The position numbers and the translations under genes are program-made. DNA of 64,000 bases from a virus, in the IMG/VR virus record IMGVR_UViG_3300047586_000066, positions 38,599 to 102,598 of that record; one strand, 5' to 3'. This document shows positions 23,578 through 51,870 of this stretch, one piece after another (positions within the stretch are counted from its first letter, which is position 1; each line of letters starts with the position of its first letter). The notes under the pieces are model-generated. The model did no database searches. It saw nothing but the letters and a program-made list of their open reading frames with translations, and was not told where the DNA came from.

Positions 23578-24241
23578 TCGTGCTCTCCATCGGAAGTTCC
23601 GGGTTGCTGTTTTCAGGTATCACTCGCACGATTCGAACGCGATCACCCAGACTCTTAGCTAGGTTTTTGGCCTTCTCCGGCAGCTCATCTTCTTTGTCGG
23701 TGTCGACGACCAACTCAACGCGCTTCGGCCGGAACGATGTGAAGATTCCAGGGACGAATCCTGGCTTAGCTTCCAGGTTTTCAGCCGCGAGAGTATGAAT
23801 AGCTTTCTTATGAGCCAAGTAGACAACAGTCAGACCCACTTCGAAGCCGTGAGGTATGGAAGAAATGCGCTTCGAGATCCCCCTTTCCCGAGCTTCTTTC
23901 ATAAAATCCGCGGTTGAGTAGAACTTCTCTCCCACCCATAGAAGCCCCTGCCTGCCTTCCACTGGGTTACAGACATCACAGGTAAGGCAGCTATGTCCCG
24001 GGGCCGCTTGGGTACAAAGCGGCCAGTTCGCCGGAGCCATAATTATGCTGGGCTCAATCCAGGTGAAGCCACGGGAAAACTTAATCCCCTGGCTGCATGT
24101 CGGACAGCATGCCAGCGGGAATGGTAATCGTTCGCACGATTCGAAGATCCCCTCTCCTATAAAGTAGATTCCAACACCATCTGGTCCTGAATGGCGGAAG
24201 CCGCAACCCCGCGCTTTCTCTCTTACAGTTTCGATCTCCAT
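23552..24241 (-). CDS. Conserved phage protein, Cys-rich, 229 aa
   Basis: Starts REKARGCGFRHSGPDGVGIYF and has CCPTCSQGIKFSRGFTW, CLTCDVC, GLLWVGEKFYSTADFMKEARERGISKRI. This order (CGxR, CPxCGxGIKxSRGxxW, GLLWxGEKFY) occurs in a widespread phage protein family of unknown function. Zinc binding is likely from five or more paired Cys. It sits between the SbcC- and SbcD-like genes, overlapping both, so it may be a third subunit or regulator of that complex (inference). Confidence 0.6.
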   Translation of the reverse strand: MEIETVREKARGCGFRHSGPDGVGIYFIGEGIFESCERLPFPLACCPTCSQGIKFSRGFTWIEPSIIMAPANWPLCTQAAPGHSCLTCDVCNPVEGRQGLLWVGEKFYSTADFMKEARERGISKRISSIPHGFEVGLTVVYLAHKKAIHTLAAENLEAKPGFVPGIFTSFRPKRVELVVDTDKEDELPEKAKNLAKSLGDRVRIVRVIPENSNPELPMESTNDTEETEG

Positions 24242-25380
24242 TGATCCTCCAGTTGTCTCAGTTTCTCTTTCATCCCAGCCTGGTCTTCTTCACTGGGATA
24301 ATTGTTGGTTGCTTTCCAGTAGGCTTCGAGCTTTTGCTCCAGCGTATCCGCCTTCGCAATATCGGCAGCTCGAACCGCTTCTTTTGGCTGTACCTGCGGC
24401 TCGACTTTCGCCTCGAGGGCCCCCAGCTCCATGAGCACTCGCTCGAGTTCGGCTTTGGCGAACCCTATATCATCTCCCTCATCGACTTTCAGGAGGACTC
24501 GGACCCGAGCGCCTTTGATCCTGGCTGGCTCGTAGATTCCTGTTTCAATGAATTCTCCTTTTTTCCAGACGTATTCCATCGAGTATCGATCAACGACATC
24601 CAGCTTGATCCATTCGATGGTACCGGCGTCGGTGTCGAGAACGGAGCAATACTTCTCCGGGTGCTCTCCATAATCGAGCGCAGCAGGGGAACCGTTGTAG
24701 AAATAGGGCCCACATAAATCAGGAAACTGCTGCCTCAGATGAATATGTCCGAAGATGCCAGCGAAGAAGCCAGCTTCCATCAGGTCATACTGCCCGAACT
24801 TCACGCCCTCACCCTTGAATGGCTGGTGATTCTCCAGCGTAGCGCCGTCGATTACAAGATGGCTGACGAGAATGTGTTTGTCGCTTTCCTCGGCACCTGG
24901 TTTTAGCTTTGCCAAGTAGATCGATTGCAACAAGTAATCCATCGCCAGTTTCGAGACTGCCTTGTCGCCATCTTCCTTTGACATTCCTGGATGAGCGGAA
25001 ATCCATGACGACTTTGTGAACCAAGGCAAAATGTGGAGAACGCAATCAGGCCCGAACAGACCAGGGTAGAAGATATGCGGCGATGAAAATACCTTAATCG
25101 GATACTTCGATTTGATTTCTCCAAAGATGTCCAGATCGCCGGGCTCATCGTGGTTTCCGTAACAGATGACAACGGGCGCAACCTCCGCCATGTCGTGCAC
25201 TAGTGCACGGAGGAGATTGCGCCCTTCGGGTGTTGATTTGCGATCGAACAGATCGCCGGGGAGAGCGATCAGGTTTACTTTCCTGACCGCGAAGTGCTGG
25301 ATGATTTGTCGCACAGAAATAGTTATGTCGGCGTCCAGACCGCAGTCCAGATGCCAATCGCCGGATGAGCCTATTAACAA
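24223..25380 (-). CDS. SbcD/Mre11-like exonuclease
   Basis: 385 aa metallophosphoesterase. Motifs are GDWHLD (7-12), GDLFDR, CYGNHDE, SHLVIDGA and FGHIHLR, the five metal-ligand motifs of Mre11/SbcD/T4 gp47. The C-terminal part has a helical capping region and a basic end. It acts with the SbcC-like ATPase on DNA ends. GTGCAC dyad copy 4 lies inside the coding region (25195-25208). GGAGACTCC upstream includes a weak ribosome binding site. Confidence 0.9.
   Translation of the reverse strand: MLIGSSGDWHLDCGLDADITISVRQIIQHFAVRKVNLIALPGDLFDRKSTPEGRNLLRALVHDMAEVAPVVICYGNHDEPGDLDIFGEIKSKYPIKVFSSPHIFYPGLFGPDCVLHILPWFTKSSWISAHPGMSKEDGDKAVSKLAMDYLLQSIYLAKLKPGAEESDKHILVSHLVIDGATLENHQPFKGEGVKFGQYDLMEAGFFAGIFGHIHLRQQFPDLCGPYFYNGSPAALDYGEHPEKYCSVLDTDAGTIEWIKLDVVDRYSMEYVWKKGEFIETGIYEPARIKGARVRVLLKVDEGDDIGFAKAELERVLMELGALEAKVEPQVQPKEAVRAADIAKADTLEQKLEAYWKATNNYPSEEDQAGMKEKLRQLEDQWRSKL
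25195..25208. repeat. GTGCAC dyad, copy 4, inside the SbcD-like gene
   Basis: GTGCAC-TA-GTGCAC with the same spacer as the palindrome at 4517. It lies inside an otherwise ordinary coding region, about 172 nt from the start codon. It therefore cannot serve as a leader for that gene, which favours a DNA-level role. Confidence 0.65.
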
Positions 25381-29849: not shown

Positions 29850-32800
29850 TTAAGGCGATGGCGGCGGAGGGAGGGATGCCGACGCCGACTTTCGAGCGGG
29901 TGCATTGACTTTACCTGAGAGAATTTGGTCAATCACTCCGCGTTCCTTCTTTGGACTCGCTTTGACGACACGTCCCTTATTCGGGCCAGAGGTTATCACG
30001 CGAGCTCCTTTAGGAACTTCATGAGTTGCTCTGATCGCCATGAGGGTCTCCATAATGTACTCAGGGATAGAATACCTTTGATCCCCTCGAGTTAACATAC
30101 TAATTAAATTGGTTACCGAGAAGGGTATCGGCGTAATGCCTCCGGCAATATGCAGGAGTCCTCTGATTGACGCGGCTGGCTCCGGCATTCCCTTCTGGGC
30201 GATGGCTCTTCCTGCCCAGTCCTCATTCTTCAAAGCCTCCATCCCGGTTCGTGAGAGCGGGCTCATTTTGTTGGCTATCGACCGAAGTAGACCTTGAACC
30301 AATCCATAATCTTGGACGTTATCCCATGCCTGAATCAAATCGGAAGGTCCGCCAGCAAAGAAAGTCTTCTTATAGAAAACATCCTTCCCATCCTTATCCT
30401 TGCCAGCGTACACGGCTGTCGGATGCCTTGAGAACTTTCCGGTGAGCATCAGGCTTGTGAATTCCGACAGGAGGATTCCAAACACAAAGGCTCGGAACCA
30501 GAACCACCTTGCAGCTCGCCCGGCCGGCGTGCTCTCGATAAGTCTTCCCATAGGATTATCAGGAGGCGGCGGCAGCCCGGCGCCAGGTGGTTGGTTCGGC
30601 GGACCTCCGCCAGGAGGAGTCCCACCCGGAGGAGGAGCCCCACCGGCCGGAGGAGGAGCCCCACCGGCCGGAGGAGGAGCCATTTCAAAAGCATATTTTA
30701 GCTGTATGACATTGGAGAATGTCCAGTCGGGCGCCAGGAAGAACAGCCGAGCAGCTCCAACCAGCATCTTATTAAGGCCCATGACCTCCCAATTCAATCC
30801 ACCATAGGCCGAGTTGACCTCTTTGGCGATCGATCTCCTGGCTTCAGCGAGTCTGTTGGGATTCTGGGCTTCCACTGGATGTTTTGCTATCCACGCCGCA
30901 TCCTTCAGCATGAAGTCGTGAACCTTAAAGATGCGCTGCATATGATCGAACATGAAGCGGGTCAGCCCGCGTGCGGCTTCGTCGATCTGTTTGATCCCGG
31001 GGACAGTCCTTAGCTTGTCCGCCAGAGGAGATTCTTCGGCCCTGATCCCGCGGTAGGCTTCGATCGCCTTTCCCGCCATGCTGGTTACTAGGCCATACCG
31101 AGCGCCGAGCACTTCCCCAGCTTTGAACGTCGGGGTATCGCTGAATCCTTTTTCAAAGATTGTCTTGATCTCTTTGGGACCCATGTTTGCGATTGCGGTC
31201 GCCGTCAGAGCTTTCATGTGGAAGAAGGATAGCCCGAGTTCCACGGATTTCAACATTGCCTGGTAAACCCGGATAGCGGTATAGCCCTTGAGATGACGGA
31301 GATAATCCGGATCCGTGATCGCTCTTAGGGCTTCGACGATCGGCTTTGGTCCGAAAGCTCTTCGGTATGCGGTCCTGGGTTCTCCGGTATCTTTGTCATC
31401 ATAGGCGAAGTGATAATCCCAGAGCGCGTTCTCTCCACGGGTATATGGAACCCAGTCTTTAAGATCCGGATCTCCGCGGGTGCCATATTTAAGGACACCA
31501 TTATTTTTAAGCAATCCGATCAGTTTAACGGTGGCGGCCACTTTCGCCCAGCGATCGCCGTAGATCGTCATAGCGTCCAGGGCGTTGAATGTCGCGGGCC
31601 GGGCCCCAGTCTCACCGCTGAATGCAAGAGCCGTCAGCAAGTCTGGGAATGTTCGTTTGCTGGCGAACTCGAAATTTCTGGGCATTGGATGACCTTTGAT
31701 GTTCGTTGGAGCCGCATTGCCACTGGATGGTTCCTGATCGAAGGTCAAGATATGGACGAGATAGTCCTCCGGCAGAATGTTGCTTTGCAGGAAGCCAAGC
31801 AATCTCCCTTCATACAGCCGGCGCCGGAAGTAGGCTGTCTGCAAATCGGCGACCTGCTGCATCTCTGGAGACGGATTCATCGCTCGCTCGATTACCGGCC
31901 GCAGCTCTCGCACGGCTTTTATCGCTCTCAACCTGGCATCCGTGACCTCCTGGGGCGTTGCCTTCGGATTCTTCTGCGCGAAGTACCGAGCAACCTTATT
32001 GAATATCGGATGAGTCCCATCCATAAATTCTTGCAGCTCGCCCGGCCGGTTTCCAAATTCACGAAGCAGGCTTACCGCTTGCTGATCCAGGACAGAAGGG
32101 ATCATCTGCCGGCACATTTCTCTGAGCTGGTTGGTTTCAACAATGGACGGGTCTCGATCGCCAACAAAGAATGATCGGAGGGCTTCTTCGAGTTGGCGCC
32201 TCTCCTGGCCCATGGCTGTCTGAAGATCTGCCAGGACCTCTTCAGGAGAACGACCTCCGATGCCGGCCGTATAGCCGAGGGTCCTGGCTACTGCGCCAAG
32301 GATTTGTTGCGTCGACGGACCACCTGAATACATGTAATGAGGCCCCTTATTGTCGGGCTCTGGCTCATTCGCCGCATCTTTGGGTTCTGTTTCCTCGTCC
32401 GGCTGTGCGACTTTGGATTCAGGCAGCGGCGTCAGGCGATTATTTATGCGTTCGTCGAGCTGTCTCTGAGCGTCGAGAACCTGATCAGAAAGCTGGTTGT
32501 AAAGTTCGAAGTCTCCTTGATTGCCGGCCTCGTCTCGCTGCTTCGTCAAATCCTTGACTCTGGTATCGAGGGCGTCGACGTCCATGTCCGGAGGTTTCAG
32601 TCCGCCCGGAGGTCCGGGAAGTCCTCCGGCTGGAGGCTTGGCCACTTTTCTTTTAACTGTTGGGACTGCCTTCTTTAACTGGAGGCCACTGAGGAACTTT
32701 CTCGGAGCCGAGGAGGCTATCCCCGCTTCCGCATCCACTTCCTCAACCGATTTACCAGATCTCTTTGCCTGCTCATAAAGAACAACATAGGCTTCGGCTT

Positions 32801-35800
32801 TGGAATATTCCTCACCAAGGCTCTCAATCCGATCGCGCCACTTCGCAATTTCGTCCTGGTAATTCTTAACCCGACTCTGAGCATCCGAAACGTTATTGCG
32901 TAGGCTCTCCAAGAGCTGTTCATAATATGCCGAGCCATTTCCTTCGCGGATATCCTTTTCATAGTCGGTAATCCTGTCCTGCCAGCTCTTGATTCTGTTT
33001 TCGTGGTTTACAACGGCATGTTCGGATTGCTGGATATCCTTTTCCAGTTCAGCGATGCCAGCCTGAGCAAGCGTCGAGGCGTGTTTGGCGCGATAGTAAT
33101 CTAGGGTCGATTGCGGGATCGCCGCGGAGTCGGCCAGCTCTTGGAAGTTCCGTCCATCCGAATCGAAGTCCGTAACTTCATCGGCGTCACCCATCCAGAG
33201 CTCTTTATTCCAGCGATCTTTTCTGGCCAGTATGTCATACAGCTTTGCGTCGGAAGTTCCCTTGACCAGGTACCGGTGAATCCTGACAACATCATTCGTG
33301 TTGCCTTGGCGCAATCCTCGGCCGCCGCGCTGTTCAAGTCCGGCTGGATTCCATGGAACATCGTAATTATGGATATCAGTCGTGTAGGTTTGGAGGTTCA
33401 TGCCCTCACCCATTGATTGGGTTGTTCCAATCAGAAACCGGTTCTTTCCTTCGGCGTTCTCCTGCTGAACCTTAAACTTTGCCTTGGCTCCAGAATTGCT
33501 CTGCTGGTTTATGATCTCGATCTGAGACTCTGGGATCCCGGCTTCTATCAGCTTCGCTTTAATGTGCTTGTGGATATTGAGGAGCTCTACGAATTTCCCT
33601 TTTTTCTGCTTTGAGGCTTCTGGATCTTCGTCGTCTTCTCCTCCTTGGCTGATCTTCTGATTTTCAAGATCGTCCCCTTCCTCTTCATGGTAGCCGCCAC
33701 GGTAAAGATCGCAGAAGATTAACTGGCAGTTGTCGCCAGTGTCGAGATTGATAACGTTGTTTATCAGGCTGTCGAGCTTAGAACCAGGTCCGCCGAGAGA
33801 ATCGCCATACTTTACTGGGTCAAAGATTGCAGGGTCAGCCGCAACCTTCCTGGCTTCAGTCAAAACTGTGAGATGATTGATTCCCAGCTCTGCCGCATGC
33901 CGGAAGTCTTCTTTGACGAATTCATCGAGCCATGCAATATAGCCGGCTGCTTCGGTGACTGCTTCCGTTGGCTCCAGTTTGTGATCCTGATACTCAGCGG
34001 CAGGACGCTGGACAGGCAACATTTCAATCGGACGGAAATCGACATAGCGCCGGAAGATCGAGCGGAGCTCCTTCAGGTTTTTATATCCGGTCCAGACTGT
34101 CTTAGAAGTAGGAACGCCTGTGGCTCCTTTGACTTCAACGGTGTCTATCACTCCGAACTGTTCGATGAAGTCACCGGCGTTCATGATCCCTCGGCTTGTC
34201 CATTCTTCCGGAGCTACATACTGCATCATCGCGTAGATTTCAGAAGGATGGTTAGGCGTCGGGGTTGCCGTCAGACCAAAAACATTGGCGCCTTTCTTCC
34301 CGCCTCGGCGCTCATGAATGTATCTGGTTTTGTAAACCATGTCGGCCGCCCGCTGGGCCGGCTTACCCTCATGAACGTATTCAGCCATGTCTCCGTATGA
34401 ACGCGGAGAATTTTTGTAATTGTGAGCCTCGTCAATAATTATCCCGTCGACGCCGAGGTCCTCGAACCAAACCGTCTTTGTCTTCTTGAAGGCTTGGAGC
34501 TGCGCCAACCGTTCCTCGAGGCGCATGACAGCATTCTGGATATCTTGCTCTCTCTTTTTTCTCTGGGCATCACTCTTACCACCGGCCGCCATAGTCGCAT
34601 GGAGTCTGTCTTCGAACAGTCGGATATCTTCTCGGATGTATTCTTCCGATTTCTGGAGGGGAATCTCCTTCATACTCTCAAAGCTGATAAGAATATAGTC
34701 AGCATCACTGGCCGCAACTCTCTGGAGCATCCGGTATCGGTTGTCGGCATCCATCCCAGAAAGGTCTGCAATCTTGGCATCAGGCAATACCTGAGAGATT
34801 TCATAGGCCCAGTTTTTAACCACCTTGGCCGGAGCTACAATCATCGGCTTTGTAACCTTGCCGGTAGCTTTAAGGTGAGCTGCCAAGAGGATTCCAACGA
34901 GCGTCTTGCCGCCGCCGACACCGTAGGAAACAATCCCGGCGCCCATATGAGCCTGCCGGCCGACCCCTTCCCATTGATGAGACTGGATCTCTAAAGGCTT
35001 CCCTTTGAAAGTGGAAGCCAACCCAGGGATGTTGAGCTGCTTCGGAGAATAGAATCTCTCCCTGAACGATCGGAACATGCGGTTATAAATCGGCGTGAGG
35101 TCCTCAAAATAGGAGCGATTCCCTCTGGCCCATGTCTGGAAGTAATCCGTCAGCTTCTTGTAGGTTCGCTCTCCGACTTCCGAGAAGATTGTCTTCATCT
35201 TCTCCCGGCCTTTGGCATCACGCTGCCCGGTTGGGATCTGCTTTGTAGGTCTCCTGTGATTCAGGTAATTCTCTACGACCTCTTCATCGAGGACGACCTG
35301 GGTAGGAAGAGGAACACCATTTGCATCCTTTATCTCTCCGGCGACTTCCATCTGGAGTCTGAAATGTCCAGAGACGTGCCAGGCAAACTTCCCACGTTCC
35401 GGATCAAATTCTTTTTCAACGGTCCATGTTCCCGGGAATTGATTCTGAACCCATGTCTTTACAATCCGGTCCTGCATGTAAGAAGAGAACGGATCTGATC
35501 GCCGAATAACTTCGTCCGTATCGGCTTGTTCAGGTAGGGCATTTTGAAGTTTCTCGAGCTGCTTCGAGAGGACCTCAAGGATCTTCGCTTTATCCGTGCT
35601 GTCCTCATGTGTCGACTCAATCTCATTGTAGAGAGTGTTCGTCTCATCAATTTTGGGATAGATATCTCCGAAGAGATATTCATCATCGATTTGGAGGACT
35701 GGCAGAGCATTGGCGTCGAGGGCCTCAATGCTGAAATCCGGATGTCCGACAAGATCATTCTGGTCTCCGGGCCCAGTATAGAGAGACTTAAACCGATCCC

Positions 35801-38800
35801 AATCCATAACAGAGGTTTCTTCGTAAACAAACTTAGCTGTGTCTACAGCGTCGGTCGGATCGAAACTCCGCGGGACTGGAGCGGGACGATACATCGTATT
35901 CTTTGTGAAGATGTCAGACGGATCCCCTTTTCTGTCGGTCAGTCCGGCCAAACGCCAGACTCTTGGATCAGCAAATGGGAAGGGGTTCGATGCAGGCCCG
36001 CCATTCAGATACTTCCAAAGCGCAGGATCGGTCCCGGGTGCCCCTGAAGGATTAGATTTTGCAGTTGCATAATCCTTCTTATACTTCTCGAGCGTCGGAC
36101 GGATCAATTCACGAAGCTGGTCGGCACGGTCGATATCATTCTCTCTCAGTGCGGAATACAGCTCATCCGTCAACTCCATCAATCTCAGGCCCCGCTGGAC
36201 TCGATTAAAGGTCTTGTTCTTATCTTCGCCACCCTTTCGCTTCCTGGGCATCTCAGAGGCTTCGTAGATATTTCCATCCTTGGCGGCGTAGCCGAACTTC
36301 TCCTTTTCGGCATCCCAGACGATCGTCCCGGTCTTCATTCCTTCCGGACGTTCGCCGAGGATAGGACGCTCCGACTCTTCTTTGTCTTCCCGAGTTGAGG
36401 CTGTTATCTTTACGGGCACGTAGCGGATCTCATCCTTCAGAGCTCCGTGCATAACCCTGTCATATCGAGCTGCGTCTCGTTTCCCGTCAGCTCCTTTGAA
36501 ATGCTCTACGCCGACCTGTTCCTCATACAACCCCAGTCCTGATTTTAGAGTCCCCCATGCCTTTTCAGGATGCTTGACATACCAGGACGACAGTTTCCCT
36601 TTCGTTGGGTTGCCTTCGTCTTTGGGATTCAGGGCATGGATGAATTCCTCCTGATACATTGTATCGGTCCAGTTCGCCATTTCCTCTGGAGTCCGTTTGC
36701 GGAAGAAGATGACGTCAGTGCTTCCTTCGTAATGGGTGTTTTTCGAGAATTCCCCATTCGGAGTTCGATACGCCCCGAGGAATTCGCCGCGACGGTTCAT
36801 CTCTTTCCTGGTCTCGACCTTATCGACGCCGGTGCCATCCATGGTCCCGATGCTCGTAAAGTAAGCAACCATGCCATTCGGCCGCGCCATGTCCAGAGAC
36901 TTCATAAAGAAGAAGTCATGTAGAGCTTTAATATCTTCGTATTCCTTTGCTTCGTCTGAATACTTCAGGGCTCCACGGTGAGCGTTGAAAGGAACGTTCG
37001 AGATGAACAAATCGATATCGCGGCGAGGAGCGTATTCCTCAAAAGGCAAGTTTGAGACTTTGGCATCGGGGTAGAGTAACCGGGCTACCTTAACGGCGAT
37101 CTCATCAATTTCTGTCCCAAAGATCTGAACCGATGGATGCGCGAAACCTCCGAAGTTTCCTATGCCGAAGGCCGGATCCATCATCTTTATATCTTCAACG
37201 GGGAATCCCATTGCGCGGAGTTTGTCCCAGGTCCACTCCACCATGCGATAGGATGTATAGTGCTCGTAGAGTAAACCGCGCTCTTTCTCGGTATCTCCGA
37301 GACCTCCGGATCCGGTGTATTTGCGAAGGAGATCTTTTTCTTCGTCTGTGAGGGGATCACCTGGTTGTTTGGTTTGGACAAGATCGATGACCCGGGCATT
37401 GATATCCCGGCGCTCTTGCTTGGACAGGACTATTGGATCTCGTCCTCGGAGGCTGTAGCGGCTTCCTTTGCTGAGCTCCCCAATATCTGGCTTTTTAACT
37501 GGTCTTGGAGCTGGTCGCTCGGCAGGCTGCTCAGTAGGAACTGCTGTGTCAGGTCCTCCACTAGGTTCTGCCTCCCGTACTTCTCCACTAACTCCGGCGG
37601 GAGTTGGTCCACCAGCTTCTCCGCTGACTCCTCCGCTTGGTATATTCTTTGCAGTTCGGTCGCGCTGTTCACTGGGCTTCCTCTCTTTCCGTGGAGGAAC
37701 AACCTCAATATCTTCTGGAGGAGGTTGCGGTAATCCTTCACGTTCGGCAATGGTGCCGGCGGCGATGCTTTCCGCTGGGCCCGTTACTATTCTAGCATTT
37801 TGGTCATCAAACTGATCCTGAAATTCCTCTGTTTGGGCTTCCTGGTTCCCCGGACTCACGATCGCGGTCGCCGCTTCAGTCCAGCCGCCGTTCTGTTTTG
37901 GAACCTCAGCCCGGACTCCTACAGTGGTCATTTCAGACTTGGGCTCCAGGATTCCCATTAGGGAGAAGTCGGTATTGTTTTGGGCTGCCGTTCGAATATC
38001 CTCGGCGCTAATCGCTTTGGGATCGTACAGATATCGGCCTTTCCCCTCGATATCAATGGCTCCGATGGTGTCCGGATCAACTCCAGACCGATCGATGATC
38101 GATTGGCTGAAATTATCGATGTCTACAGTCGGGTCATTCGGGATGAAAACTACTCTACGCCGTCCTTTGTTAAGAGCCTTGAGCTGGGTGGAGAAGGTTG
38201 CCTGCTCTTCTGGAACCGTGACCTCTGGAGGCGGAGGGATCCCATGAGTTGGAACCGGTGCCCGGCCGCCAGATCTCTCGAGGTTTTTCCCGATCGTGTT
38301 TATTTCATCGTTGCTCAGGCCATCAAACGGTTTCCCATATAGTCTTCGAGCAATGTGATCCAGATCTTGATGCTGTCGTTGCGCCATTCCCCTGATACGC
38401 AAGCGGCTGAATCCCGAAGTCTTTCCCGGAGGTTCAGGAAGCGACTCGCGTTTAATCGCCGTTCTGGCACCTGGTATTTTAGGGATATGGGCTGCGTCCG
38501 CGAACAGGTGATTCATCCATTTCTGGGCTTCATCAAGAACGCGCTGGGAAGGTCCGAGACCTGCCTCTGAACTCATGGCAAGCTGAATCTTCGGTTCGTC
38601 AGCCGTGCCGGCGATCTTTGCGCGGATGGAGAAGGCTGTTTGCGGTGGATCCCCCAGCTTCTCAGACAGGTGATGAACGATTTCGTTGGCGAGCTGGCCG
38701 ACTCCTTTCCACGCTTCAGGGGAGGCATCTGTTCGCAGCGACGTCGGGATATCTGCCTGGGTAATCTTGCGGGCAAACTTCATTCGCTCTGCCTGATCCG

Positions 38801-41800
38801 GGATCAGAGGCTCAAGTTTGTTCGATGTTTCTTGAACGAACTGTTCAGTCTCGGCATTCTCGAACGCATACCGGCGCTGATACAGCCCCTCGAGGATGCT
38901 ACTTTCTTCCCGGGTGAATGGGGATTTCTCATGAGGCATGAGAGTCAAGGAGGCTTCTCCATACTTCGAAGCTAATTGATCTTCGTAAGCATCGACCGCT
39001 TTTTGGGCATCATCGTAGCTCTGCGGTTCGGGACCCAGTTTACTTGACAGGCCGGTGTCCGCCTGAGCTGGCGTCAGATCTGGAGGAGGAGCCGGAAGCT
39101 CACTGGTAGGCTGAGCCGGTGCCGCGGCCGCTCCTATCTCCGGGATTCCTTCATTCCAGTTGGTCGCGCCGTGGCGAATGAAATAGACTCCCGGCCGCAA
39201 TGGAGCATCGTTCTCCGGATGGGTGCCAACGCGCTCCATCTTCAGTCCGTCCGGAGTGAAGCCTAACCAGTAAACGGATCCGGGCTCGCCATCCTTCTTC
39301 TGCATCTCGCCTTTGTCGATGTCGAGAGTCTCGCCGTTGGCTCCTGCTTTGATCCACGCCTCGAGGAGCTTTGCGTTTCTGAATGAGCCTACAACCGCAA
39401 ATTTCTTTTCCGGATTATCGTGAGCTGTGCCCAATACGATTTGCATATAGCCCAGAAACCTGTTTTTGAAATCGTTGAAGCTCTCTCCGGGCTTGGTTGA
39501 ACTGGGTCCCTGGCCAGGTACGGGCTCATCGGGACGATTGAGCATGTAGTCATGGAGTTTGTCGATAACGAGAGAAGTCTGCTGTCCCTCAAATCCACCA
39601 GACCTCCAAGGCTGAAGATCTTCGCTCATGTCAAGGATCGGAGCATTAGTGGCATCCGACAAGATCGTCGCTGTCTGTGCCGTCCGCTGGAGATCGCTGG
39701 AGAAGATTCCATCCAGCCCGCCATTGCGGTGGAAGTAATCTCCGATATCTGTAGCCTGGCCGATCCCGTTCTGATTCAGAGGCAGCGGATCAGAGCTTCC
39801 GCGGAGAAGTTCCTCTGACTGAGCAGGCGATACCCCTTCCGGTTCTCCTTCAGGAGGAGCTTTATCGAGAACTCCGCCCGACTCTCCACCCGGAACGGCC
39901 GCAGGAGTCTCTTCTGTCGGAGGAGCTTTTAATTCTCCGCTCTTGGGCTCGACCTGGGTCTCAATCTGGGTCTGGGCCTCAGTTCCATAAGCATTTTGTT
40001 CGACAGTGGCTTGTTCGATCGGCGTGAGCGGACGTCCGAGCCGTTGTTCTTCCTGAGCCTTCAGGGCGTCGACGTCGACAGAACCGAGTCCGGCTCTGCC
40101 CTGGGCTGCCGTGATTCGGTCCATATTGAACTTCTGCCGGATCGCGTTGACCTCATCAGAGCTGAGCGGAGCGCCCTTCTTGGACTCAGCGGCATCAAGC
40201 CGGTCCTGCAACTCCGGTATTCCGCTCTTCGCCGAACTTATTTTCCCCGCGGCAGCCGGTCTTGGTTTCCCAGCATTGATCTGAGCCTTCGTCACCCGGT
40301 CCAGGTTGAATTGACCGCGAATCTTATCGATCTCTTCCGGAGAGAGCGGAGCACCCTTTTTGGACTCGGCAGACGCCAGGCGTTCCTTGAATGTCGCATC
40401 TGTATCCGGCAAATCTCCTCCAGGAGGCGCCGGAGTCCCAGGCTCAGGGATAGACGCAGGCTCGCCTCCGGATCCAGTCGGACCAGGCGGAAGAGCTTTC
40501 TTGTCAAGGTCAGCCGACGTTCCTGCTTGCGCTGGCGGAGTAGGACCCTTGCCTGCTTCGTTCACCTTCTTGGCATTCTCAAACCGAGAGGTCTGAGCTG
40601 TCTTCTTGCCGGCCACGTAATCTTTTATGATCCCCATCCATTCCGAGGTTGTCTTGATCCCTCCGGCAAGGATGGCCGAGCCGAAGGTCGCATTGGCCAG
40701 AGCCTTCGTGACTGCATTCCCGAGACCTTCGTAATCGCCCTTCTTTGCGGCATCCCAGGCTTCCTGAGAGTCTTGAATCGCACCATAGAGCATTGGAACG
40801 CTCAGACCAAACGAAGCCGCAATTTTGAGAAACGGCGCCATGGGAATCTTTCTCAAGGCAACCATGAGAACGATATTCTTGGGCGTGGTCATCTGCTCGG
40901 CGAGTTCTCCCATGGCTTTCACGCCGCCGACAATGAAAGGTGGAGGCGGCGGCGCGGTGTAAACCACACCATTCAAACCAACGACCTGTCGAGGTCCTCG
41001 CGCAACGTCGGCATCGACTATTTTCGATACAGCGCCGGAGATCTTCAGGAAAGGATGATCGTACCAGGCCGTGTCATTCGCGACATGGGGATCCTTGTTC
41101 TCGTATCCTGGAATCTTCCCTGATGCGTAATCATCATGCAAAGTCTGGGCGTAGGACGTCGCCGACTGCGGAGAATCGAAGATGCCGAGATGCCGGCCCG
41201 TTCGCTTATAAGCGTCGACGGCTTCCTCGTTCGTCATGATATGGCCGTCATCGCTCACTGTTGGAATCAGAATCTCTTCTCCATTGATTCCGACGCTGAT
41301 CGAACGAACGGTACTCCGGGTGCCATCGGGATTGGTGACGACCGGCCGCTTTGTCAGATCGATATTCCCAGGTTCAAGAAGGCCAGGGACTTCCTTGTCG
41401 ACCAGACTCGTAGGCAAGGTTTGAGGAGTGCTCTTATCTGACTGGAGTTGAGCCGCAATGAGGCGCTGAGGTAACTGCTGTCCGGCCTGCAAGGCATCCC
41501 AAACCGACGCATATCTCTTGTCTCCACTTTTGGGATCGTACTTCTGGGCGTTCTCTCCGATGTAGAGCAACAGATCTTTGTCCTTCAGTCCCATCGCCAC
41601 GCCGGCATCGTAGACAGGCTTGATGTATTCCAGGGATTTCGGGATCACGTAGTCCGGATCATAGGCCAACTGATCAGGGACATCTTTGCCATACCCGGAG
41701 CCATTCCATTGGTAGAGACCTCGGGAATATTGCTTGTTGGAATCCATGACTTTGGCGTGGGAGTTTCCGCCCGACTCCGACATGATAATCGCCCGATTGA

Positions 41801-42275
41801 TCGCGGGATCGACGCCATAGATGTTGGCGTATCGATCGGCCTTCGTCCACAGGCTTTCAGTCTCATTTGGATCCGGAATGGCACCCGGAAGATTTTTTGG
41901 CAACTTCGCCGGCGTGAACTTTGTCGTCTGGTCCGGTGGAGGAGGAGGCAGACCCCCGCCATATGCCTGCTGGGCCAGTTCTCCTATTCTTCCAACGGCC
42001 GCTTTCGTAGCTCCCCAGGTCCTTTCCATGAGACCTGGTTCTCGGAACTCATTGACCCACTGATCATAAGGACGATGGATGATGTAGTCCTGGGATTCCT
42101 TGTCAGCGCCGGCAAAGCCTTTATCGATCTGGGAGAGCACAATTCGACGAGCTTCTGGCACTAAAGCATGGAATTTGGGGTCAAGAACTGTGTCCTTAAG
42201 AGTGGGTAGAGGTTGAGCCCCCATCCCCCCCGGAGTCGGTTCCTGTGGCGTCTGCCCTTGGGGATCTTCTGCCAT
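29850..42275 (-). CDS. Giant polyvalent protein: transglycosylase, phosphatase-like, N6-MTase, SNF2 helicase
   Basis: 4141 aa. Domains by residue: lytic transglycosylase SLT-like (140-260; Glu in MSESGGNSHAK); LIPTVSDDG...GRHLGIFDSP phage domain (330-385); hydrophobic helices (465-500); repeats AESKKGAPLS (about 627 and 690); histidine phosphatase-like with circular permutation (825-1040); DarB-like N6-adenine MTase (1600-1860; MDPAFGIGNFGG, ISNVPFN); SNF2-type helicase (2400-3030; VGGGKTL, IIDEAHNYKN, LTATPTPN, QRGGRGLRQG); coiled coil (3065-3170); large C-terminal polyvalent-associated region (about 3325-3850); Pro/Gly repeats (3861-3905); membrane-like helix (3918-3948). Polyvalent proteins are delivered with the DNA and protect it from restriction (Iyer and colleagues). 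Phage P1 DarB is a relative. The start has only AAAGG upstream. Confidence 0.85.
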   Translation of the reverse strand: MAEDPQGQTPQEPTPGGMGAQPLPTLKDTVLDPKFHALVPEARRIVLSQIDKGFAGADKESQDYIIHRPYDQWVNEFREPGLMERTWGATKAAVGRIGELAQQAYGGGLPPPPPDQTTKFTPAKLPKNLPGAIPDPNETESLWTKADRYANIYGVDPAINRAIIMSESGGNSHAKVMDSNKQYSRGLYQWNGSGYGKDVPDQLAYDPDYVIPKSLEYIKPVYDAGVAMGLKDKDLLLYIGENAQKYDPKSGDKRYASVWDALQAGQQLPQRLIAAQLQSDKSTPQTLPTSLVDKEVPGLLEPGNIDLTKRPVVTNPDGTRSTVRSISVGINGEEILIPTVSDDGHIMTNEEAVDAYKRTGRHLGIFDSPQSATSYAQTLHDDYASGKIPGYENKDPHVANDTAWYDHPFLKISGAVSKIVDADVARGPRQVVGLNGVVYTAPPPPPFIVGGVKAMGELAEQMTTPKNIVLMVALRKIPMAPFLKIAASFGLSVPMLYGAIQDSQEAWDAAKKGDYEGLGNAVTKALANATFGSAILAGGIKTTSEWMGIIKDYVAGKKTAQTSRFENAKKVNEAGKGPTPPAQAGTSADLDKKALPPGPTGSGGEPASIPEPGTPAPPGGDLPDTDATFKERLASAESKKGAPLSPEEIDKIRGQFNLDRVTKAQINAGKPRPAAAGKISSAKSGIPELQDRLDAAESKKGAPLSSDEVNAIRQKFNMDRITAAQGRAGLGSVDVDALKAQEEQRLGRPLTPIEQATVEQNAYGTEAQTQIETQVEPKSGELKAPPTEETPAAVPGGESGGVLDKAPPEGEPEGVSPAQSEELLRGSSDPLPLNQNGIGQATDIGDYFHRNGGLDGIFSSDLQRTAQTATILSDATNAPILDMSEDLQPWRSGGFEGQQTSLVIDKLHDYMLNRPDEPVPGQGPSSTKPGESFNDFKNRFLGYMQIVLGTAHDNPEKKFAVVGSFRNAKLLEAWIKAGANGETLDIDKGEMQKKDGEPGSVYWLGFTPDGLKMERVGTHPENDAPLRPGVYFIRHGATNWNEGIPEIGAAAAPAQPTSELPAPPPDLTPAQADTGLSSKLGPEPQSYDDAQKAVDAYEDQLASKYGEASLTLMPHEKSPFTREESSILEGLYQRRYAFENAETEQFVQETSNKLEPLIPDQAERMKFARKITQADIPTSLRTDASPEAWKGVGQLANEIVHHLSEKLGDPPQTAFSIRAKIAGTADEPKIQLAMSSEAGLGPSQRVLDEAQKWMNHLFADAAHIPKIPGARTAIKRESLPEPPGKTSGFSRLRIRGMAQRQHQDLDHIARRLYGKPFDGLSNDEINTIGKNLERSGGRAPVPTHGIPPPPEVTVPEEQATFSTQLKALNKGRRRVVFIPNDPTVDIDNFSQSIIDRSGVDPDTIGAIDIEGKGRYLYDPKAISAEDIRTAAQNNTDFSLMGILEPKSEMTTVGVRAEVPKQNGGWTEAATAIVSPGNQEAQTEEFQDQFDDQNARIVTGPAESIAAGTIAEREGLPQPPPEDIEVVPPRKERKPSEQRDRTAKNIPSGGVSGEAGGPTPAGVSGEVREAEPSGGPDTAVPTEQPAERPAPRPVKKPDIGELSKGSRYSLRGRDPIVLSKQERRDINARVIDLVQTKQPGDPLTDEEKDLLRKYTGSGGLGDTEKERGLLYEHYTSYRMVEWTWDKLRAMGFPVEDIKMMDPAFGIGNFGGFAHPSVQIFGTEIDEIAVKVARLLYPDAKVSNLPFEEYAPRRDIDLFISNVPFNAHRGALKYSDEAKEYEDIKALHDFFFMKSLDMARPNGMVAYFTSIGTMDGTGVDKVETRKEMNRRGEFLGAYRTPNGEFSKNTHYEGSTDVIFFRKRTPEEMANWTDTMYQEEFIHALNPKDEGNPTKGKLSSWYVKHPEKAWGTLKSGLGLYEEQVGVEHFKGADGKRDAARYDRVMHGALKDEIRYVPVKITASTREDKEESERPILGERPEGMKTGTIVWDAEKEKFGYAAKDGNIYEASEMPRKRKGGEDKNKTFNRVQRGLRLMELTDELYSALRENDIDRADQLRELIRPTLEKYKKDYATAKSNPSGAPGTDPALWKYLNGGPASNPFPFADPRVWRLAGLTDRKGDPSDIFTKNTMYRPAPVPRSFDPTDAVDTAKFVYEETSVMDWDRFKSLYTGPGDQNDLVGHPDFSIEALDANALPVLQIDDEYLFGDIYPKIDETNTLYNEIESTHEDSTDKAKILEVLSKQLEKLQNALPEQADTDEVIRRSDPFSSYMQDRIVKTWVQNQFPGTWTVEKEFDPERGKFAWHVSGHFRLQMEVAGEIKDANGVPLPTQVVLDEEVVENYLNHRRPTKQIPTGQRDAKGREKMKTIFSEVGERTYKKLTDYFQTWARGNRSYFEDLTPIYNRMFRSFRERFYSPKQLNIPGLASTFKGKPLEIQSHQWEGVGRQAHMGAGIVSYGVGGGKTLVGILLAAHLKATGKVTKPMIVAPAKVVKNWAYEISQVLPDAKIADLSGMDADNRYRMLQRVAASDADYILISFESMKEIPLQKSEEYIREDIRLFEDRLHATMAAGGKSDAQRKKREQDIQNAVMRLEERLAQLQAFKKTKTVWFEDLGVDGIIIDEAHNYKNSPRSYGDMAEYVHEGKPAQRAADMVYKTRYIHERRGGKKGANVFGLTATPTPNHPSEIYAMMQYVAPEEWTSRGIMNAGDFIEQFGVIDTVEVKGATGVPTSKTVWTGYKNLKELRSIFRRYVDFRPIEMLPVQRPAAEYQDHKLEPTEAVTEAAGYIAWLDEFVKEDFRHAAELGINHLTVLTEARKVAADPAIFDPVKYGDSLGGPGSKLDSLINNVINLDTGDNCQLIFCDLYRGGYHEEEGDDLENQKISQGGEDDEDPEASKQKKGKFVELLNIHKHIKAKLIEAGIPESQIEIINQQSNSGAKAKFKVQQENAEGKNRFLIGTTQSMGEGMNLQTYTTDIHNYDVPWNPAGLEQRGGRGLRQGNTNDVVRIHRYLVKGTSDAKLYDILARKDRWNKELWMGDADEVTDFDSDGRNFQELADSAAIPQSTLDYYRAKHASTLAQAGIAELEKDIQQSEHAVVNHENRIKSWQDRITDYEKDIREGNGSAYYEQLLESLRNNVSDAQSRVKNYQDEIAKWRDRIESLGEEYSKAEAYVVLYEQAKRSGKSVEEVDAEAGIASSAPRKFLSGLQLKKAVPTVKRKVAKPPAGGLPGPPGGLKPPDMDVDALDTRVKDLTKQRDEAGNQGDFELYNQLSDQVLDAQRQLDERINNRLTPLPESKVAQPDEETEPKDAANEPEPDNKGPHYMYSGGPSTQQILGAVARTLGYTAGIGGRSPEEVLADLQTAMGQERRQLEEALRSFFVGDRDPSIVETNQLREMCRQMIPSVLDQQAVSLLREFGNRPGELQEFMDGTHPIFNKVARYFAQKNPKATPQEVTDARLRAIKAVRELRPVIERAMNPSPEMQQVADLQTAYFRRRLYEGRLLGFLQSNILPEDYLVHILTFDQEPSSGNAAPTNIKGHPMPRNFEFASKRTFPDLLTALAFSGETGARPATFNALDAMTIYGDRWAKVAATVKLIGLLKNNGVLKYGTRGDPDLKDWVPYTRGENALWDYHFAYDDKDTGEPRTAYRRAFGPKPIVEALRAITDPDYLRHLKGYTAIRVYQAMLKSVELGLSFFHMKALTATAIANMGPKEIKTIFEKGFSDTPTFKAGEVLGARYGLVTSMAGKAIEAYRGIRAEESPLADKLRTVPGIKQIDEAARGLTRFMFDHMQRIFKVHDFMLKDAAWIAKHPVEAQNPNRLAEARRSIAKEVNSAYGGLNWEVMGLNKMLVGAARLFFLAPDWTFSNVIQLKYAFEMAPPPAGGAPPPAGGAPPPGGTPPGGGPPNQPPGAGLPPPPDNPMGRLIESTPAGRAARWFWFRAFVFGILLSEFTSLMLTGKFSRHPTAVYAGKDKDGKDVFYKKTFFAGGPSDLIQAWDNVQDYGLVQGLLRSIANKMSPLSRTGMEALKNEDWAGRAIAQKGMPEPAASIRGLLHIAGGITPIPFSVTNLISMLTRGDQRYSIPEYIMETLMAIRATHEVPKGARVITSGPNKGRVVKASPKKERGVIDQILSGKVNAPARKSASASLPPPPSP
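30628..30681 (-). repeat. 21-bp tandem repeat inside the polyvalent gene
   Basis: Two full copies (30628-30648, 30649-30669) and a partial third of a GGAGGAGGAG-CCCCACCGGCC unit encode PPPAGGA repeats in the C-terminal Pro/Gly linker of the giant protein. The length is a multiple of three, so copy number can change without a frameshift. Confidence 0.75.
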
Positions 42276-48447: not shown

Positions 48448-51400
48448 CTATAGGGTCTGAGGCGGCGAGAGCTTCACTCTACCGTAACCGTCCTCGGGGT
48501 TGGTGCCTTTCATCTCTACTTCACTTTTTTCCCAATAGAGCTGAAAGGCAAAGGGAGAGCTGAACAAAATCCGGAATAACCGACCTTCGATATTGCTCTC
48601 AAGGTCGATTCTCCTCTTGTTGTGTCCGGTGACCCTGCGATCGATTGAGATTGTTTTCGTCGACGCCAGAACATCATCGGCATAGAGTTGCATCGTCACC
48701 GCGGAATCTGGATTCTTCATTGCAAGCCACAGGCGCCGGATAACCTTAGTCCGATCATAAGAGAAGAGTTGCTCGTAGGTGTCCGAGAAGGTGACGTCAG
48801 CCGGGTCTTTGTCGATGACGAACCGGATAGAATAGACGCGCACTCCCTGGGGCAAGCAGCAGAACGGATCCAGGAAAGTTTCATTCACCGTTACCCGGCC
48901 GAGTTTCCCGAACAGGTCTTTGTCCAAAGACTTGGTAACGAGGGCCCTGCCATCCGTTCGGATATCAAAACTCTGTTTGATCTTACCATCGACCCAGAAA
49001 TCGAAGCCGATCGCCGTGTTGTTGGTATCGATGTCGAAAATGATTTCCTTCCAGAGTTTCGGATAAGGCCATTGTTCCTCAGACCAAGGCACCTGATAAC
49101 TGTTGATCTGCGGCGGCTCGGGCAAAGTCTGGATGCTATGGTCGTAGAGTTTTACTTCGTTCTCTCCCTGGGGAACAATCTTTAGCCGTGCCAGCGTCCC
49201 ACGGAGATCCGGAGGCAGCCCATAAAAGAATTTAGTGCGGCCGTTGGCTGTCGTGTTTGCTTTGATGGTCGCGCCCAATGCCTGATCGATTTGGACCTCA
49301 ATTCTGTCGAGAGGGAAACCGAAGGTATCAAGTTCAATCCAAAGTTCTCTGAAGAATTTAGGGTTCGGAGATCCATAATCATACCATTCCGTAACGAACG
49401 TCCGGTGCTTCATCGGTTCCAGCAGGACCCGATGTATTACCTTGAAAAGTTTTGTCGACCTGATAGCTGTGACGCTCTGTCTGGAAATAACCCGGATCGA
49501 ACTGCGACGAGCCAGGAAACCTTCGCCTTCCCCCATAGGACATGGAAGGATAAACTGGTCTCTTCGAGTGGTGCGAACGTCTCCAAGAATCTGCTTATCC
49601 CAGCCGTCGAAAGTAACCTCGAATCTGACCGGATAGCCCAGGGTGTCTACGTCGAAAACGTAATCGATGAACCGCTTTTCCTGGTCCGGATATCCGAGAT
49701 CGAATTCCTTTGTGTCCATCGCATAGAAGATTCCTCGGTTCCCGGACTCGCATTGATCGAAGAAACCGTTTTCCATCTGCATGACCCAGGCGCCGCTGAA
49801 GGCGAAATCCAAAGGAACGCCGTTAATGAGCGCGTCCCACTGAGTCACGTTGGAACCGGCAAGGAGTTTGGTTTCCGGCTCAAAGAACAATCCCTGACAG
49901 CCGTAGAGGTAGTAATGCCACCGGCTATATATGATGTCCCAAACCAGCATGTTGTCATTCTTGACCGTGATATCTGGCAATCTGGGATAGCTGAAATAGA
50001 GTTTGGAATTCCAGAACGCCATCGCAATTTCATGCTCGCGGCCCTTCTGAATTGCCGGCGCTTCGTTCACCGTTTCATTGAAGAAGATCGGATTGATCAG
50101 CTCGCTTATCTTGGTGCCGGACGGGAATTCATAAACCCCATCATAGCAGTACATGAAGATTTGTCGATCGCCGCGACACACTCCGAAAGGACTCATCAGA
50201 CCTTTGTTGATCGCGGTCGAGGGAGCCTGGTAGGAGTTGAGATCCGCTCCGGTGACACGATAGACCCTGGTGAGCGTAAAGACGAAGAGTTCTCCGTCAT
50301 TCTCCATAACTCGCTGAATCGCTTCTGACCCGGTTCCGACATAGATATAGTTCTCTGCGGGAAACAGTTCGACCCTGGTTCTCTTGGAAAATCTCAACCG
50401 GTTAGGAGGCTCGTTTACCACAGTCCCGGTCGAATCGGTTATCGATCCTCCCCATGTCCACAGGCGATTATCCGAGAACTCCAGACCGGCAACGTTATCC
50501 GGAGGAAGCTGATTGTCTGTCTCAAGCACATCTCCGAGAGCCGAGTCTGGAGTGCTATCTGTATAGACCGGGGGTATGGCTCCAGGTGTGTATGGGATTT
50601 CATCCACAAGCTGGAACTGGGTTATTGTCGCCCCCATCCTGTAAATCCTAATTTTATCAGGATCAGCCATGGGCGGAGTCGTCAGCGGGCACGGAGGGAA
50701 AGTGAGGTCGAACACTCCGTACTCTATTACCCCAGATGTAGGACCGGCAATCGTGTCCGCGTAATCGCTTTCCGTGTCTGTCTTCGAATTGTAATAAGTG
50801 AAAGTGTACTTGAGATCCGGGGCTGTCGTGCTGACTCCCGTTGCAACCTGACCGGTCTTATTGAGAGACATCTGGTCCCAATACACATTGCAAGGGGTGA
50901 GAGCTCCAGCGATCGGTGTAACTATCAGATTGATGGCTGTGACGTTGGCCCAGGTAAGCGAAGGGTCTGGTCCGGAGAACTGGAACGTGTTCTTTGGGAT
51001 CTGGACTAGGTTCCAAACTCCTGCGACTAAGCCGACTGTCGGCACGTCACACCACATTATGTTTTCGAACGTGACATCACTTGGAGTCAGGCTCAGTCCG
51101 AACTGGATAGTCGCTACTCCAAAAGCGTCGATGTCGTCCTGGCTTGGGAACATCATGTAAACCTGGATCGACTGAGTAAGATCGCTTTGGTTTAGATCGA
51201 TAGTCGTAGCAGCAACCGGCTTATGACATGATCCTGTCGTATCGGGTGGGCTGACCAACGTGCTCATGGCCTTTGTTCCCACTATTCCAGTGACATCGGC
51301 CAGAGTCATACTCGCGTCAGGAGTCCAGGTAGCTTTGCTCTCAAAGTCTTCAATTCCAGTGGTCGCTGCGGTTCCAATCGCTATATTTGTGATCGGAGAG

Positions 51401-51870
51401 AGAGGTCGAGGGATGCCCACACGACGAGCTGCATTGGAGCCGCCTGAATGTTTCAGAAGCGCCTTCCCATCCGTGAAAAACATAAAAGGCTTCAGCTCCG
51501 AACCTGTGAGCGTATAGCTCCCAAAGAACGCTCTCGGGTCATCAGCGATTGACAGGTTGCTTCCACCTGTTACTTGAGTGAATGCTCCCGGATTTGGGCT
51601 GACCTGGGCAATATAGAGCTGGGCAGCGCAGATAGCGTATCTCCAGACCACGCCGTCATAATCTCTGATGATAAATGACGAGTGAGGAGTCGCGGGAAGA
51701 CCGTCATTGAACCTGGAAAATCCTTTGCGGACGGAGATCGAGTTCTCCTGGTCGGTGAACATATTGACCAAGAGTTTGTAGGCAGTAATCGGAATCTCAT
51801 CCGGAGTGGACTTGAGGACCATTCCAGTGTTTGCGAAAGTGATCGGAATGGATTTCGTTGTCTCTGGCAT
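48448..51870 (-). CDS. Large tail protein, nozzle/stabilisation-like, 1140 aa
   Basis: Beta-rich with short repeated blocks such as FFTDGKALLKHSGG, GTGSEAIQRVMENDGELFVFTLTRVYRV and CYDGVYEFPSG. This pattern, where a value is read into a strand and followed by DG..F..T..., resembles the beta-propeller of P22 gp10 and T7 gp12 tail tube/nozzle proteins. At 1140 residues it is longer than both, with an Ig-like C-terminal part. Position next to adaptor-like proteins supports a tail role. Tentative. Confidence 0.5.
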   Translation of the reverse strand: MPETTKSIPITFANTGMVLKSTPDEIPITAYKLLVNMFTDQENSISVRKGFSRFNDGLPATPHSSFIIRDYDGVVWRYAICAAQLYIAQVSPNPGAFTQVTGGSNLSIADDPRAFFGSYTLTGSELKPFMFFTDGKALLKHSGGSNAARRVGIPRPLSPITNIAIGTAATTGIEDFESKATWTPDASMTLADVTGIVGTKAMSTLVSPPDTTGSCHKPVAATTIDLNQSDLTQSIQVYMMFPSQDDIDAFGVATIQFGLSLTPSDVTFENIMWCDVPTVGLVAGVWNLVQIPKNTFQFSGPDPSLTWANVTAINLIVTPIAGALTPCNVYWDQMSLNKTGQVATGVSTTAPDLKYTFTYYNSKTDTESDYADTIAGPTSGVIEYGVFDLTFPPCPLTTPPMADPDKIRIYRMGATITQFQLVDEIPYTPGAIPPVYTDSTPDSALGDVLETDNQLPPDNVAGLEFSDNRLWTWGGSITDSTGTVVNEPPNRLRFSKRTRVELFPAENYIYVGTGSEAIQRVMENDGELFVFTLTRVYRVTGADLNSYQAPSTAINKGLMSPFGVCRGDRQIFMYCYDGVYEFPSGTKISELINPIFFNETVNEAPAIQKGREHEIAMAFWNSKLYFSYPRLPDITVKNDNMLVWDIIYSRWHYYLYGCQGLFFEPETKLLAGSNVTQWDALINGVPLDFAFSGAWVMQMENGFFDQCESGNRGIFYAMDTKEFDLGYPDQEKRFIDYVFDVDTLGYPVRFEVTFDGWDKQILGDVRTTRRDQFILPCPMGEGEGFLARRSSIRVISRQSVTAIRSTKLFKVIHRVLLEPMKHRTFVTEWYDYGSPNPKFFRELWIELDTFGFPLDRIEVQIDQALGATIKANTTANGRTKFFYGLPPDLRGTLARLKIVPQGENEVKLYDHSIQTLPEPPQINSYQVPWSEEQWPYPKLWKEIIFDIDTNNTAIGFDFWVDGKIKQSFDIRTDGRALVTKSLDKDLFGKLGRVTVNETFLDPFCCLPQGVRVYSIRFVIDKDPADVTFSDTYEQLFSYDRTKVIRRLWLAMKNPDSAVTMQLYADDVLASTKTISIDRRVTGHNKRRIDLESNIEGRLFRILFSSPFAFQLYWEKSEVEMKGTNPEDGYGRVKLSPPQTL

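What the first reader, a model, noticed from the sequence alone, without database searches (positions are those of the whole stretch)
29850..42275. 12.4-kb polyvalent gene combining at least five enzyme-like domains
4141 residues join a transglycosylase, a histidine phosphatase-like domain, an N6-adenine DNA methyltransferase, an SNF2 helicase, coiled coil and membrane-like parts. Polyvalent proteins are known, but this order with a phosphatase-like domain is, as far as I recall, unusual. It takes almost one fifth of the window and probably enters the cell with DNA to degrade peptidoglycan and counter restriction.
Basis: partly seen in the sequence, partly recalled or inferred. Interest (0 to 1): 0.7.

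Follow-up and report, generated by a model that had tools for sequence, protein, structure and literature searches.

The report
Phage giant protein with rearranged phosphatase
A virus of bacteria makes one giant protein, probably injected into the cell with its DNA, that joins a cell-wall-cutting domain, a DNA-methylating and DNA-walking module of known type, and a phosphatase domain whose chain has been cut and rejoined at a new point, an arrangement I could not find described for that enzyme family.

Summary
The 4141-residue ORF is real (minus strand, 42275-29850). It is a DarB-like polyvalent protein: weak but motif-consistent lytic transglycosylase, histidine-phosphatase (HP) domain, LPD36-like/N6-adenine methyltransferase, SNF2 ATPase, coiled coil and a helical C-terminal module. 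Transglycosylase+methyltransferase+SNF2 giants are known (Bcep22-like phages, CSP3). The new part is the HP domain. It is circularly permuted: the RHG strand that opens every canonical HP lies C-terminal to the rest. Support: Pfam positions 13-190 then 1-14 in chain order; a gain to 83.4 bits over 1-190 when rejoined in canonical order; AlphaFold2 (pLDDT 88, pTM 0.87) plus Foldseek hits to HP structures; and ten further viral contigs with the same rearrangement. Nine permuted members form one clade (99/98) among phage HPs in canonical order, some fused to portal or prohead-protease proteins. In this protein and one other methyltransferase-SNF2 fusion (L071), the second catalytic histidine is replaced (Ser, Asn); the other eight alignable permuted domains keep it. 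The HP may therefore be impaired or only bind ligand here and be active elsewhere. Entry with DNA, antirestriction and the HP's target are inferred. Membrane segments were not confirmed.

The parts
29850..42275 (-). 4141-aa DarB-like polyvalent protein gene
   Evidence: open ORF, translation P0001, families
41496..41858 (-). lytic-transglycosylase-like domain, residues ~140-260, catalytic Glu in MSESGGN (res 165-)
   Evidence: SLT_3 E 7.5e-4 on fragment, MltE 2y8p E 0.006
41124..41534 (-). module of unknown function, residues 248-384, shared with L071
   Evidence: blastp 33% identity, 1.4e-16
39153..39815 (-). circularly permuted histidine phosphatase domain, residues 821-1041
   Evidence: PF00300 13-190 followed by 1-14; AF2 pLDDT 88.4; Foldseek to HP structures
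39219..39815 (-). HP core (profile positions 13-190), residues 821-1019
39153..39191 (-). displaced first strand with the nucleophile motif, YFIRHGATNWN, residues 1029-1041
39384..39386 (-). position of the second catalytic His, here Ser964 (VVGSFRN)
   Evidence: alignment of 10 permuted domains
37638..38276 (-). domain of unknown function, residues 1334-1546; in L074 and L072 its homologue precedes the HP
   Evidence: blastp to L074 5.7e-7 and L074-L072 alignment
36657..37424 (-). LPD36-like segment (GSGGLG) and N6-adenine DNA methyltransferase, residues 1618-1873, motif IV NVPF at 1760
   Evidence: phrog_1685; Eco57I weak here, stronger but still under the cut-off in relative L071; NVPF in relatives
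33303..34946 (-). SNF2/SWI2 ATPase, residues 2444-2991 (GGGKT, DEAH, LTATP, QRGGR)
   Evidence: PF00176, PF00271, phrog_10089, motifs
32751..33101 (-). probable coiled coil, residues ~3059-3175
   Evidence: crude heptad score
29886..32222 (-). C-terminal helical module, residues 3352-4130, shared with other phage proteins of about 1,100-1,600 aa (L074, L098, L099, L101-L103)
   Evidence: AF2 low confidence, mostly helical

Best explanation
This is a DarB-like polyvalent protein of a tailed phage. I think it is packaged in the virion and ejected with the DNA. It is built like a modular cassette: a helical C-terminal module that also occurs in smaller phage proteins, plus exchangeable enzyme modules. 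The transglycosylase would open the peptidoglycan; the LPD36-methyltransferase-SNF2 unit would travel on and methylate incoming DNA against restriction, as for P1 DarB. Between them sits a histidine-phosphatase domain that is circularly permuted: beta-strand 1 with the nucleophile (RHG) has moved to the C-terminal end, so the fold and active site are rebuilt in a new chain order. The permuted form arose once as a phage-specific clade. Relatives place it in head genes or beside 2H-phosphoesterase or ADP-ribosyltransferase domains, so I infer it acts on a phosphorylated host molecule (nucleotide, ADP-ribose or protein) early in infection. Here the second catalytic His is Ser, so this copy most likely has reduced or altered activity, or only binds its phosphorylated ligand. 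Shown by computation: ORF, domains, permutation, single clade, loss of the second His. Inferred: virion location, ejection, antirestriction, HP target and activity.
For: PF00300 matches 13-190 in the native chain (73.1 bits); an independent search gives 13-190 then 1-14 downstream; rejoined in canonical order it gives 83.4 bits over 1-190. A profile of the permuted domains matches PhoE 1ebb in two pieces, 215-227 to chain 4-16 and 11-164 to chain 19-163, E 3.1e-17. AF2 pLDDT 88.4, pTM 0.87; Foldseek hits are HP structures at probability 1.00. Same order in L069-L074, L076, L080, L082, L104. One clade 99/98, 98/96 with the moved strand and clade-specific insert columns removed. Head context: L069 HP gene between portal and virion structural genes; canonical-order relatives fused to portal (L083) and to NUDIX plus prohead protease (L079). 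Modules exchanged between phages. DarB class and precedents.
Against: No proteomics; virion location rests on homology, and the window's own neighbours are barely recognisable (internal virion protein phrog_511 E 5e-5 at 48448-51870; most others no match). The nearest methyltransferase-SNF2 relative, L003, has no HP, so the HP is not needed for the shared function. The transglycosylase match is below Pfam's cut-off. The HP target is a guess from fusion partners in relatives.
Confidence: 0.72

Rival explanations
1. The HP domain is a fully active phosphatase here too: nucleophile His1035, Arg1034 and Arg864 suffice, and the second His is dispensable or replaced by a nearby residue.
For: Nucleophile His and the helix Arg are kept in 10 of 10 permuted domains, including this one; the domain is still under enough selection to score above the Pfam cut-off.
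Against: The second His is a core residue of the superfamily (established knowledge) and is kept in 8 of 10 permuted relatives; it is lost only in the two methyltransferase-SNF2 fusions (window, L071). Flea acid-phosphatase-like proteins that lost catalytic His residues, in their case two, are inactive binders (PMC10728186).
Confidence: 0.25
2. The HP domain is mainly structural: a head- or portal-associated module used in assembly or for packing the giant protein in the capsid, without an enzymatic role in the host.
For: HP relatives sit in head gene blocks and on portal and prohead-protease proteins; degenerate RHG in L076 and RHF in L073; Ser or Asn at the second His.
Against: The catalytic residues are kept in most members of the clade, which a purely structural role would not require; the neighbouring fusion partners are enzymes (2H phosphoesterase, ART, NUDIX).
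Confidence: 0.22
3. The protein is made inside the cell early in infection and is not packaged; its domains act on host and phage DNA after synthesis.
For: No virion data; the neighbouring genes are mostly unrecognised.
Against: A transglycosylase-like domain only makes sense at entry or lysis; DarB itself is a virion head component (stated in PMC5512222); gene order shared with L071 includes the internal-virion-like gene 48448-51870.
Confidence: 0.13
4. The permutation is an illusion: an ordinary HP with a lost first strand, followed by a chance RHG motif.
For: The displaced piece is short, about 13 residues.
Against: The same strand and motif recur at the same distance (198-218 residues) in nine alignable domains and in L104; no RHG lies upstream of the HP in this ORF; the structure model has this segment as a strand, E217-222, in a high-confidence region.
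Confidence: 0.02

Closest known systems
DarB of phage P1 and DarB-like antirestriction proteins
   Same: LPD36-like segment, N6-adenine methyltransferase and SNF2 ATPase in this order (phrog_10089; architecture as described in PMC5512222)
   Different: adds a transglycosylase-like domain, a permuted histidine phosphatase and an unrelated C-terminal helical module; DarB function not tested here
Bcep22/BcepIL02/DC1/CSP3 multidomain transglycosylase-helicase-methylase proteins
   Same: giant gene taking about a fifth of the genome or window, transglycosylase plus SNF2 plus methylase
   Different: about 27-28% identity in the shared core only; no phosphatase found in their records by tblastn with this domain
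Histidine phosphatase superfamily branch 1 (PF00300; PhoE 1h2e, CobC, TIGAR)
   Same: sequence profile, fold, nucleophile His and two Arg
   Different: circularly permuted; clade-specific PGxGxxSTxPGES insert; second His replaced by Ser
Canonical-order phage HPs fused to head proteins (L083 portal-HP, L079 HP-NUDIX-prohead protease)
   Same: nearest relatives found by sequence; LRPWxxGxLEG and GES motifs
   Different: RHG strand at the N-terminus as usual, second His kept
L071 (IMGVR_UViG_3300047444_000783) polyvalent protein, 4182 aa ORF
   Same: permuted HP followed by methyltransferase and SNF2, 44% identity over 1654 aa; second His also lost
   Different: no match to the window's C-terminal module; no transglycosylase match at the threshold used

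Membership tests
Polyvalent proteins (Iyer et al. 2017) | several domains of disparate activity in one polypeptide of a mobile element | tested here: met
   HP, methyltransferase, SNF2, weak transglycosylase in one ORF
Polyvalent proteins (Iyer et al. 2017) | encoded near virion genes | tested here: inconclusive
   internal-virion-like gene at 48448-51870 E 5e-5 and weak tail-like genes; TerL lies elsewhere in the record; relatives L069 and L076 are next to portal or terminase genes
Polyvalent proteins (Iyer et al. 2017) | packaged and injected with DNA | not testable with these tools
   needs virion proteomics and ejection assays
DarB-like antirestriction proteins | LPD36 + adenine methyltransferase + SNF2 ATPase in this order | tested here: met
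   phrog_10089 1.1e-127, phrog_11801 3.8e-174; GSGGLG and NVPF motifs
DarB-like antirestriction proteins | protects phage DNA in cis from type I restriction | not testable with these tools
   needs plating tests
Histidine phosphatase superfamily branch 1 | profile match over the curated cut-off | tested here: met
   62.4 bits in the whole ORF, cut-off 21.7
Histidine phosphatase superfamily branch 1 | HP fold | tested here: met
   AF2 model and Foldseek
Histidine phosphatase superfamily branch 1 | RHG strand at the start of the domain (canonical chain order) | tested here: not met
   strand is C-terminal, circular permutation
Histidine phosphatase superfamily branch 1 | catalytic core of nucleophile His, two Arg and second His | tested here: not met
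   three of four kept; second His is Ser964; a homologue, but not filed as a proven phosphatase
Lytic transglycosylases (SLT) | profile match over cut-off | tested here: inconclusive
   SLT_3 20.3 bits against a cut-off of 27; catalytic motifs aligned to MltE

The most novel reading that the evidence does not exclude
Phages have evolved a circularly permuted histidine-phosphatase family as a virion-delivered effector module that removes or traps a phosphorylated immune signal (nucleotide or ADP-ribose derived) at entry; in the DarB-type giants, loss of the second His has turned it into a ligand-trapping domain, and the linker before the RHG strand lets whole enzymes be inserted inside the fold, as with the ADP-ribosyltransferase in L080.
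Probability: 0.2. Interest if true: 0.78.

Novelty: new variant of a known kind. Interest (0 to 1): 0.6.

Why it matters
I found no paper in the open library on a circularly permuted histidine phosphatase, and the enzyme family is very widespread. A phage clade that has permuted it once, places it in head genes or giant injected proteins, combines it with known counter-signalling or host-modifying enzyme types, and has lost a catalytic residue in the two methyltransferase-SNF2 fusions points to a virion-delivered phosphatase-derived effector with a testable target. It also shows how these giant proteins are assembled from exchangeable modules: L003, L071 and L074 each share a different subset with the window's protein.

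Tried and rejected
Single-sequence search of viral contigs with the HP domain gave no relatives; the pattern scan for RHG[A/E/D]TxWN and alignment-based searches did. No relatives in 84,980 bacterial and archaeal genomes with two alignment queries; exact-pattern prefilters limit this result. In plasmids only two weak partial hits, one annotated as an ordinary histidine phosphatase. PDB phmmer with the single domain gave no hit in native or rejoined order; the family profile did. The weak Pertussis_S1 hit in residues ~3341-3405 (E 0.11) was judged chance. The C-terminal module could not be modelled well (pLDDT 55), so no fold search was run on it. The Pseudomonas phage PseuP_222 HP sits near the repressor and replication genes and is not informative. 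Chance RHG motif and membrane anchors were considered and rejected.

Full report
WHAT IS THERE. The window is the last 64 kb of a 102,598-base uncultivated virus record. The ORF at 29850-42275 is on the minus strand, starts with ATG and has 4141 residues without interruption. Pfam finds a histidine phosphatase (PF00300, 5.9e-17) and an SNF2 ATPase with its helicase C domain. PHROGs finds DNA methyltransferase and DarB-like families at E 1e-127 to 4e-174. The methyltransferase has the LPD36-like GSGGLG segment described by Iyer et al. (PMC5512222) and motif IV as NVPF, the usual form in this subfamily (24 of the 25 relatives that matched the motif pattern). A transglycosylase-like domain lies at residues about 140-260, below Pfam's cut-off but aligned with MltE through ESGGN and GL.Q. 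A coiled coil at 3059-3175 is plausible. No segment reaches a usual transmembrane threshold.

KNOWN PART. Giants with transglycosylase, methylase and SNF2 helicase are already annotated in Bcep22-like Burkholderia phages and others. In CSP3 such a gene takes 22.3% of the genome (PMC10269572). P1 DarB is the archetype of the methylase-helicase dyad and is a virion component that protects DNA in cis (as reviewed in PMC5512222). The main text of the polyvalent-protein survey never uses the word phosphatase, and 50,697 phage records contain no close match to this domain.

THE PHOSPHATASE IS CIRCULARLY PERMUTED. In canonical histidine phosphatases the chain starts with a strand that ends in RHG, the nucleophile motif. 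Here the Pfam match starts at profile position 13 and runs to 190, and the missing start, YFIRHGATNWN, lies after it, at residues 1029-1041. A six-frame search of the whole record reports both pieces in this order, 13-190 and then 1-14 downstream. Joining the pieces in canonical order gives one match over 1-190 with 83.4 bits, against 73.1 for the native fragment. A profile built from eight permuted domains matches the phosphatase PhoE (1ebb, E 3.1e-17) in two pieces whose order is swapped. AlphaFold2 with those eight sequences gives pLDDT 88.4 and pTM 0.87, with the displaced segment as a strand. Foldseek returns only histidine phosphatases at the top, with TM about 0.6-0.68, as expected if a sequential alignment must leave out or misplace the moved strand.

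A FAMILY, NOT AN ACCIDENT. A DNA pattern scan for RHG[A/E/D]TxWN and alignment-based searches found the same arrangement in ten other viral contigs: L069, L070, L071, L072, L073, L074, L076, L080, L082 and L104. The distance from the start of the core to the RHG strand is 198-218 residues in the nine domains measured; in L080 an ADP-ribosyltransferase domain sits in between. The permuted domains share an insert, PGxGxxSTxPGES, that canonical-order relatives mostly lack. In a maximum-likelihood tree of 24 domains the nine permuted ones form one clade with support 99/98, and 98/96 when the moved strand and the insert columns are removed. The nearest canonical-order phage domains include one fused to a portal protein (L083) and one fused to NUDIX and a prohead protease (L079). 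L091 shows the halves in yet another order, C-half, RHG, N-half, which suggests a second permutation.

ACTIVE SITE. The nucleophile His and the helix Arg are present in all ten aligned permuted domains; the second His is present in eight. It is Ser964 in the window and Asn in L071, the two proteins that also carry methyltransferase and SNF2. By the usual criteria this copy is therefore not a proven phosphatase. Homologues of the wider superfamily that lost catalytic His residues have become ligand binders (flea acid-phosphatase-like proteins, PMC10728186). I consider reduced activity or ligand binding most likely here, and true phosphatase activity likely in L069-type members.

CONTEXT AND MODULARITY. 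The stand-alone permuted gene in L069 lies between a portal gene and a virion structural gene, overlapping the portal frame. In L076 the HP protein also carries a 2H phosphoesterase domain and lies downstream of terminase and portal genes; L072 also has a 2H domain with an Acb1-like match. The window's protein shares different parts with different phages: methyltransferase-SNF2 with L003 (56%, no HP) and L071 (44%, with HP), and the weakly hydrophobic-to-HP segment plus the whole C-terminal module with L074 (34% in the C-terminal module, no methyltransferase-SNF2). The same C-terminal module occurs in five further phage proteins of about 1,100-1,500 residues, without HP. The giant thus looks like a smaller phage protein into which enzyme modules were inserted. 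The model of this module is mostly helical and of low confidence.

MECHANISM. Inferred, not shown: the protein is packaged, ejected with the DNA, cuts peptidoglycan, and methylates DNA while translocating, to escape restriction. The HP module would act on a phosphorylated host molecule early in infection. The association with 2H phosphoesterase, ADP-ribosyltransferase and NUDIX domains in relatives suggests a nucleotide or ADP-ribose derivative, but a protein substrate or a structural role is not excluded.

LIMITS. All relatives with the permuted domain are metagenomic contigs; some are fragments. The searches of genome contigs use exact-pattern prefilters, so absence there is weak. The literature search covers open-licence papers only. 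Coordinates of the AlphaFold model could not be inspected, so the geometry of the active site was not measured. The tree is poorly resolved inside the permuted clade, so whether the two losses of the second His are one event or two is open.

Noticed in passing
L091:9845-15751 (ORF), residues 53-235: Histidine phosphatase halves in a different order (C-half, RHG strand, N-half): a second circular permutation point, in a 1969-aa phage protein.
   Followed up: partly
L080:3-3770: An ADP-ribosyltransferase domain (PF03496, 3.2e-10) sits between the histidine-phosphatase core and its RHG strand, an enzyme nested inside the permuted domain.
   Followed up: partly
L083:7964-10648: Portal protein (Phage_portal_2, 5e-38) with a canonical histidine phosphatase fused at its C-terminus.
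   Followed up: no
L079:9917-11890: Histidine phosphatase, NUDIX and prohead protease (Peptidase_S78_2) fused in one ORF.
   Followed up: no
L072:8507-16111 and L076:9674-12787: Permuted histidine phosphatase plus a 2H phosphoesterase domain (with an Acb1-like match in L072) in one protein.
   Followed up: no
L095:15903-17225 (same virus record, outside the window): Adenylosuccinate-synthetase-like gene (phrog_1211, 8.8e-70, named for a 2-amino-adenine type reaction); the active-site Asp of GDEGKG is kept. Possible modified-base DNA.
   Followed up: partly
window 13081-14979 (-): Methyltransferase and glycosyltransferase domains in one protein.
   Followed up: no
window 21379-25380 (-): SbcC- and SbcD-like nuclease genes; the SbcD-like one has a 46% identical counterpart in L003.
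   Followed up: no
window 53921-60656 (-): Three consecutive genes of 738-762 aa with no family match in Pfam or PHROGs.
   Followed up: partly
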